Assembly: GCA_021794095.1 (NCBI GenBank)
Contig: JAJYRN010000002.1
Coordinates: 1 to 64,000, forward strand
Reading direction: 5' to 3'
Source: Acidobacteriota bacterium
Lineage (GTDB): Bacteria > Acidobacteriota > Holophagae > Holophagales > Holophagaceae
DNA: 64,000 bases
Shown here: positions 51,531 through 51,929 of the stretch, piece by piece
How positions within the stretch are numbered: position 1 is the first letter of the stretch
Layout: the number at the start of each line of letters is the position of its first letter
Position numbers and translations under genes: made by a program
Notes under the pieces: model-generated
Database searches by the model: none
What the model saw: the letters and a program-made list of their open reading frames with translations, nothing else
What the model was told of the DNA's origin: nothing

Positions 51531-51565
51531 GCACGGCGATCAGGCCAGGAGCCTGATCGCCGTGC
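51531..51565 (+). terminator. 15-bp perfect hairpin after the HD-GYP gene
   Basis: GCACGGCGATCAGGC (51531-51545) pairs perfectly with 51551-51565 around a CAGGA loop, 5 nt after the stop codon. There is no T-tract. It is probably the transcript end or a 3' stabiliser of the guaA-region genes, and it directly precedes the larger folded element at 51574. Confidence 0.65.
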
Positions 51566-51573
51566 GGGAAACG

Positions 51574-51929
51574 GTTAGGAGCTGGAACGGAATAATCGTT
51601 GCCATCGTTGACGCCCAGCCGCGATGCATCCGCAGATATCCGTTCGTCTCGCGTATCGCCGTAGGCGATACCGAGAAGGAAGGGCCCGCAGGGCCATGTG
51701 GTTCATGGTTCAAGGGCCCTGACGCCGCGGGGCGCGCGGATGGGCGTCCCCGCCCACGCAGGCGTGGGCGGGGATCTAAGGTCAACCCTCCGGGCGCGGG
51801 GTGGCGGGCTGCGCGATCCCGCGTCGGCTTCGGTTCACGGAGTCCCGCTCCGCTGGAACCTCAGCCTCCTTGACTCGCTTGCCCGGCACCCCGCGCGATG
51901 GCATTGCTTATTTCGTTCCAGCTCCTGAC
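51574..51929. repeat. 356-bp element with 34-nt complementary ends and internal hairpins; candidate structured RNA or MITE-like repeat
   Basis: No convincing gene lies between the HD-GYP and nrfD genes. The ends 51574-51607 and 51896-51929 match as inverted repeats at 29 of 34 positions. On a plus-strand transcript three of the five differences would be G.U pairs. Inside are a perfect 8-bp hairpin (51653-51660/51664-51671), a 7-bp stem (51681-51687/51714-51720) enclosing CCATG/CATGG (51694-51708), a perfect 13-bp hairpin (51747-51759/51762-51774), and a 16-nt foldback with one mismatch (51794-51809/51881-51896). No transposase or T-tract is present, and no 5S/tRNA/tmRNA/RNase P signature was recognised. 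The right arm encodes the last NrfD codons. Confidence 0.7.

What the first reader, a model, noticed from the sequence alone, without database searches (positions are those of the whole stretch)
51574..51929. 356-bp intergenic element with long complementary ends and nested hairpins; possible new structured RNA or non-autonomous element
The ends (51574-51607, 51896-51929) match as inverted repeats at 29 of 34 positions. On the plus strand three of the five differences are G.U pairs, leaving only two true mismatches, which weakly favours an RNA on that strand. Inside are four more helices (8, 7+5, 13 and 16 nt arms), so nearly the whole stretch can fold. No gene, T-tract, transposase or known ncRNA signature explains it. 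It could be a large structured RNA, a MITE-like element, or a composite of REP-type palindromes; the 13-bp hairpin is REP-like.
Basis: partly seen in the sequence, partly recalled or inferred. Interest (0 to 1): 0.78.

Follow-up and report, generated by a model that had tools for sequence, protein, structure and literature searches.

The report
Mobile fold-back repeat with conserved structure
The stretch is one copy of a small jumping DNA element that cannot move by itself, spread through a family of soil and sediment bacteria, and unusually it is the folded inside of the element, not its ends, that evolution has kept.

Summary
In detail: window 51574-51929 is a strongly self-complementary element. 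It is not unique but one copy of a miniature transposon (MITE). The own genome has about two dozen copies, 42 of 47 same-genus (Geothrix) genomes match the core sequence, and a covariance model finds the core in 9 genera of the family (Holophagaceae) but in none of 16 genomes of other families. True ends are 51578-51925, inside a 3-bp TNA target duplication; relatives have the empty site. Most carriers lack a matching transposase; the ends of one subtype match an IS5-family insertion sequence. Unusually, the ends differ between copies while the inside is conserved. The inside folds with heavy covariation (282 double-changed cells against 74 in shuffles), looks like an inverted dimer of a ~118-nt unit with a conserved GGA/GAC internal loop, and has a minimal form of 267-272 bp. 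Hairpin modules are present or absent between copies. An IS110 element uses the repeat's end as its exact target at least six times in this genome. What the fold does is unproven. New variant of a known kind.

The parts
51578..51925 (+). the element proper (348 bp): terminal inverted repeat - unit(+) - unit(-) - terminal inverted repeat; orientation as in alignments A1-A3
   Evidence: copies with the same ends; ends defined by the TNA flanks
51575..51577 (.). left 3-bp target site (TTA)
   Evidence: TNA flank; in relatives' copies 20 of 31 TNA..TNA pairs have the same central base, 8.9 expected
51926..51928 (.). right 3-bp target site (TGA; centre differs from the left one, so this copy's duplication is decayed or imperfect)
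   Evidence: sequence
51578..51600 (+). left terminal inverted repeat, type T1 GGAGCTGGAACGGAATAATCGTT
51903..51925 (-). right terminal inverted repeat; codes the C-terminus SGAGTK* of nrfD; the point corresponding to the IS110 insertion in other copies is after 51908
51601..51794 (+). left structured unit (P2-P5), interrupted by modules A and B
   Evidence: alignment A2 and model R1; covariation
51678..51681 (+). GGAA, 5' side of the conserved GGA/GAC internal loop (tandem G.A)
   Evidence: nearly invariant columns in A1; GGA and GAC both kept in 28 of 34 units from other genera
51720..51723 (+). TGAC, 3' side of the conserved GGA/GAC internal loop
51786..51902 (-). right structured unit, apparent inverted homologue of the left unit (clear in relatives, not scored in this copy itself)
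   Evidence: R1, built from left halves, hits right halves on the opposite strand in register, up to 59 bits, E 3.5e-11; GGA/GAC motif on the opposite strand
51634..51675 (+). optional module A (42 bp, hairpin GTATCGCC-GTA-GGCGATAC)
   Evidence: present in 8 of 22 own copies checked; present/absent at one orthologous site, L070 against L096/L120
51746..51780 (+). optional module B (35 bp, the 13-bp 'REP-like' hairpin, flanked by a GTC repeat)
   Evidence: found in 4 own copies only

Best explanation
It is a non-autonomous DNA transposon (MITE) of a Holophagaceae-wide superfamily. SHOWN: insertion into YTNAR (mostly CTNAG) with a 3-bp TNA duplication; terminal inverted repeats of several dissimilar types; an interior whose stems are kept by compensatory changes while the ends change, apparently two inverted copies of one ~118-nt unit; optional hairpin modules that come and go. 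INFERRED: a DDE transposase of the IS5 superfamily, acting in trans and now missing from most carriers, binds the paired ends and moves the element; new copies survive mostly at gene 3' ends, where the TNA target can double as a stop codon. Because the two units face opposite ways, either strand, once transcribed or single-stranded, presents one correctly folded unit. The most likely use of that fold is at the RNA level in read-through 3' UTRs (a compact structure that shields or trims neighbouring transcripts and makes insertions tolerable in either orientation). That last step is inference only; a role of the folded single strand in transposition itself is the main alternative.
For: About two dozen T1 copies in the own genome, 42/47 same-genus genomes by core pattern. 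TNA duplication: 20 of 31 identical centres, 8.9 expected, p<5e-5, none complementary; no other duplication length fits. Empty orthologous sites for this copy, with nrfD and the HD gene ending stop-to-stop at ATCTAGAT in G007 and G015. T4 ends (GGGTCTGTTTTCAAAGTGG, L289) match the ends of an IS5-family IS in G019 (GGGCCTGTTTTCAAAGTC; DUF4096 protein, E 2e-29). Covariation on 41 module-free copies: 97.8% of cells paired against 87.8% shuffled, 39 pairs with double changes against 22, score 0.290 against 0.109; slid controls at most 0.064. On 34 units from other genera: 0.709 against 0.163. Inverted units; GGA/GAC kept in 28 of 34 units, left and right. Random orientation to genes (++ 12, -- 15), excess between convergent genes (28 against 9 divergent).
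Against: No autonomous partner with T1 or T3 ends was found; PF01609 and PF13586 are absent from the own genome and most carriers, DUF4096 occurs in only 11 of 47. Covariation of the outermost stem alone is expected for any transposon with matched ends. A3 was fitted to the model, which favours its pairs. No transcript data. The inverted-unit claim is strong for T5 and other genera (41-59 bits) but for T3 (24-38 bits) overlaps the 22-31 bits that a unit's own reverse complement gives, and plain alignment of the halves is weak (59-72% identity, z 0.8-4.3).
Confidence: 0.82

Rival explanations
1. A REPIN-like single-strand system: the folded unit itself is the recognition site and a Y1/HUH (RAYT-type) enzyme moves the inverted dimer as single-stranded DNA.
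For: Inverted pair of foldable units, structure kept while sequence changes; REPINs have the same dimer logic (PMC3116915, found).
Against: 3-bp target duplications are not expected from Y1 enzymes; Y1 transposases found in only 2 of 13 carrier genomes searched; IS5-type ends in T4.
Confidence: 0.08
2. A dispersed structured non-coding RNA with its own cellular function; the transposon ends are only its vehicle and the RNA is what selection sees.
For: Interior more conserved than the ends; nearly invariant loop nucleotides (AAGGAAG, GTTCAAGGG, TGACGC); conserved GGA/GAC and tandem G.U; minimal length held at 267-272 nt over six end types; kept across 9 genera.
Against: No orientation preference, G.U no commoner than A.C, family absent from some genomes of the genus, positions not conserved, bursts of near-identical copies in single genomes.
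Confidence: 0.2
3. The arms match because DNA hairpins are corrected against themselves (template switching, mismatch repair in cruciforms), not because selection keeps a fold.
For: Arms are matched even in divergent copies; the elements form very stable hairpins on both strands.
Against: Invariant unpaired loop nucleotides and a kept GGA/GAC loop would not follow; unpaired columns are as conserved as paired ones (0.87 and 0.88).
Confidence: 0.15
4. Chance fold or a local duplication.
For: High GC makes long stems cheap.
Against: z about -10, hundreds of copies, covariation.
Confidence: 0.01

Closest known systems
BOX elements of S. pneumoniae and S. suis (PMC3049150)
   Same: Non-autonomous repeats with terminal inverted repeats and target duplications, predicted structured transcripts, modules gained and lost at one locus; in S. 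suis two different end pairs (boxA/C, boxE/F) surround the same inner modules.
   Different: Different sequence and hosts; BOX modules are tandem boxB copies, here hairpin modules sit at fixed points of an apparent inverted dimer; here strong covariation is shown across genera.
Correia/NEMIS, ERIC and other bacterial MITEs (review PMC10969869)
   Same: Fold-back MITEs near genes that can change transcripts; Correia elements also undergo inversion, as in two orthologous site pairs here.
   Different: The review describes typically AT-rich MITEs, and Correia mostly upstream of genes; here GC-rich, TNA target, favouring gene 3' ends, different ends around one conserved core.
REPINs (PMC3116915)
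   Same: Inverted pair of foldable units moving as one.
   Different: Units are ~118 nt with several helices; flanked by transposon ends with TNA duplications; no Y1 transposase in most carriers.
IS5-family insertion sequences (DUF4096/DDE_Tnp_1 type)
   Same: T4 ends match the ends of an IS5-family IS of the same genus; targets of CTAG/TNA type.
   Different: No transposase gene inside; the other end types have no known IS partner here.
IS elements that target REPs (PMC1525189) and bridge-RNA IS110 elements (PMC11208160)
   Same: An IS110-family element is inserted at one exact nucleotide of T1 ends, as some IS elements do in REPs.
   Different: The target is a MITE end, not a REP; new host group.

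Membership tests
MITE | short, no coding capacity | tested here: met
   164-429 bp complete copies; no transposase ORF inside
MITE | terminal inverted repeats | tested here: met
MITE | target site duplication of fixed length | tested here: met
   3 bp TNA, 20/31 identical centres, p<5e-5
MITE | multiple copies and empty sites | tested here: met
MITE | ends shared with an autonomous element | tested here: inconclusive
   met for T4; not found for T1, T2, T3, T5
IS5-family derivative | IS5-type transposase in carrier genomes | tested here: not met
   PF01609 in 6 of 18, PF13586 in 1 of 13, DUF4096 in 11 of 47, none in the own genome; so described as working like one, not filed as one
REPIN/RAYT | RAYT (Y1) transposase in the genome | tested here: not met
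   2 of 13 genomes, not the own
REPIN/RAYT | inverted pair of hairpin units | tested here: inconclusive
   clear for T5 and other genera, weak for T3 and T1
known Rfam RNA family | covariance-model match at gathering score | tested here: not met
functional non-coding RNA | compensatory base-pair changes | tested here: met
functional non-coding RNA | expression | not testable with these tools
   no transcript data
functional non-coding RNA | strand specificity | tested here: inconclusive
   G.U 44 against A.C 37 cells outside four wobble-consensus pairs; orientation random

The most novel reading that the evidence does not exclude
A strand-symmetric mobile RNA: a transposon whose payload is a structured RNA unit duplicated in inverted orientation, so that whichever way it lands the host transcript carries one correctly folded unit, and whose RNA function, not its ends, is what selection has conserved across a bacterial family while the ends were exchanged or re-evolved to suit different transposases.
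Probability: 0.25. Interest if true: 0.75.

Novelty: new variant of a known kind. Interest (0 to 1): 0.5.

Why it matters
MITEs are normally recognised by conserved ends around dispensable interiors. Here at least six kinds of ends surround one conserved, covarying, apparently inverted-dimer core over 9 genera, which makes it testable whether the fold of a MITE interior has a function of its own, in transcripts or in transposition. The genus has named, cultured species, and this genome shows a recent burst. The exact insertion of an IS110 into the repeat's end gives a natural target for bridge-RNA work.

Tried and rejected
Rfam family: none. Y1/RAYT mobiliser: mostly absent. Autonomous copy with T1 ends: the paired T1 ends seen in the own assembly lie within about 450 bp, except the pairs split by IS110. 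IS110 as the mobiliser: rejected, it is inserted inside the repeat's end and does not share its ends. Integron attC reading (GTTAGGC in T3 ends resembles GTTRRRY): rejected, other end types lack it and TNA duplications are present. Viral contigs: no match to the core pattern. A first count of pairs used a mistyped structure string and was discarded. Whole-genome download was not available.

Full report
WHAT IS THERE. The stretch 51574-51929 has 34-nt ends that match as inverted repeats at 85% and further inner helices; both strands fold about 10 standard deviations better than shuffles. It lies between a response-regulator/HD gene (+, ends 51525) and nrfD (-, ends 51908). No Rfam family matches.

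IT IS A REPEAT. A DNA search of the own 3.0-Mb genome gives about 20 near-complete copies and many fragments, several of them cut by contig ends; the 18-bp terminal motif occurs 49 times with at most one mismatch. Copies are closely similar (recent burst) except for whole hairpin modules: A (42 bp), B (35 bp, the 'REP-like' hairpin), C (~80 bp) and D (~60 bp) are each present in some copies and absent in others in various combinations. Eight complete own copies have the module-free 271-bp form.

IT IS MOBILE. In 52 copies from 12 same-genus genomes the base before the left end is A in 49 and the base after the right end is T in 46; TNA stands on both sides in 31, and in 20 of these the middle base is the same (8.9 expected, p<5e-5, none complementary). 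TNA is therefore a 3-bp target duplication, in the context YTNAR. The site of the window copy is present without the element in several species: the matched parts of the two genes are about 60-70 bp apart and in G007 and G015 the genes end stop-to-stop at ATCTAGAT. In the own genome the right end of the element supplies NrfD with the tail SGAGTK and a stop. Copies favour gene 3' ends (28 between convergent, 9 between divergent genes; gene strands were predicted by a simple GC3 rule) without orientation preference. Among orthologous site pairs, some copies differ by modules (L070/L120, L078/L100, L098/L119) and two are inverted in place (L077/L092, L079/L080).

ENDS VARY, INSIDE STAYS. Within one genome different copies carry different ends, while the two ends of each copy match. 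Six end types were seen: T1 GGAGCTGGAACGRAATAA (window), T2 GGAGCCTGTCCAAGTATTCG (also in the own genome, L027 and L029), T3 GAGTGCCTAACAAAACCCC and variants, T4 GGGYCTGYYTTCAAARTGG, T5 GAGTGTGTTTTAGAATTC, T6 GAGGGTGTCTGCAAATTCCC. All have a module-free form of 267-272 bp. T4 ends match those of an IS5-family IS in G019. PF01609, PF13586 and PF01797 are absent from most carriers and from the own genome; DUF4096 is in 11 of 47.

THE FOLD COVARIES. On 41 module-free copies (A1) 39 of 75 pairs have double changes; 97.8% of cells are paired (87.8% in shuffles), covariation score 0.290 against 0.109, and at most 0.064 when partners are slid. The outermost stem must match in any transposon, but inner helices also show it: GC 25/AU 15/CG 1 and UA 27/CG 13 in hairpin P4, CG 28/UA 12 in P2. 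Unpaired columns are as conserved as paired ones (0.87 and 0.88), and GGA facing GAC (a tandem G.A) is nearly invariant in A1.

DISTRIBUTION AND THE INVERTED DIMER. A covariance model of the left unit (R1, 118 positions) finds the unit in 59 of 93 genomes of the class: 41 of 47 of the genus, 18 of 30 from the rest of the family (8 further genera), and none of 16 genomes of two other families (loci). Record titles show Geothrix species and Holophagaceae MAGs. R1 also hits the right halves on the opposite strand in exact register: L288 59 bits, L326 and L338 58, L329 53, L318 52.5, L339 52. The baseline given by the reverse complement of a left unit is 22-31 bits, and T3 right halves (24-38 bits) mostly do not exceed it. 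GGA/GAC is kept in 28 of 34 distinct units, including right units read on the opposite strand. Direct alignment of halves is weak, so the inverted-dimer origin is likely, not proven, for T1 and T3. On the 34 units the covariation score is 0.709 against 0.163, on an alignment fitted to the model. Single-unit forms exist (L115 164 bp and L116 227 bp, with matching TNA duplications; L327).

IS110. In the own genome an IS110-family element (450 aa, PF01548 + PF02371) is inserted at one exact point, GCATTGCT^TATTYCG, of the right T1 end; three left and six right junctions are seen, hence at least six insertions. IS elements with REP targets are known (PMC1525189), and IS110 targets are set by bridge RNAs (PMC11208160).

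COMPARISON. BOX elements (PMC3049150) share modularity and different ends around common modules; Correia, ERIC and other MITEs share the fold-back form, transcript effects and, for Correia, inversion (PMC10969869); REPINs share the inverted unit pair (PMC3116915). To my knowledge none combines a family-wide covarying core with changing ends. A text search for MITE work in Holophaga found nothing relevant; the library does not hold most subscription papers.

LIMITS. No transcript and no transposition data; related sequences inflate shuffle statistics; draft assemblies break at these repeats, so copy numbers are minima; gene strands come from a crude rule. What the fold does is inference.

Noticed in passing
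L060 1979-3331 (own genome C16), junctions in L004, L016, L018, L061, L064, L065, L066: An IS110-family element inserted at the same nucleotide of the T1 end at least six times in this genome (GCATTGCT^TATTYCG).
   Followed up: partly
window 51531-51565: A perfect 15-bp inverted repeat with a 5-nt loop just after the HD gene's stop and just before the element, terminator-like but without a T-tract.
   Followed up: no
window 51908-51928: The element's right end supplies the last residues SGAGTK and the stop codon of NrfD; relatives end differently.
   Followed up: yes
L077 and L092; L079 and L080: Elements at orthologous sites lie in opposite orientation, so they invert in place or are replaced.
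   Followed up: partly
L070, L096, L120; L078, L100; L098, L119: Hairpin modules and long distal arms are gained or lost at orthologous insertions.
   Followed up: partly
G019, L160 1386-2253: IS5-family IS in many copies with overlapping reading frames and ends CTAGGGCCTGTTTTCAAAG, matching T4 ends of the repeat.
   Followed up: partly
L329, L331, L342, L344: In one other genus (g23) the left unit has lost the GGA/GAC loop (GCGCAAG/CTTGCAC instead), while the right unit keeps it where seen (L329, L331).
   Followed up: no
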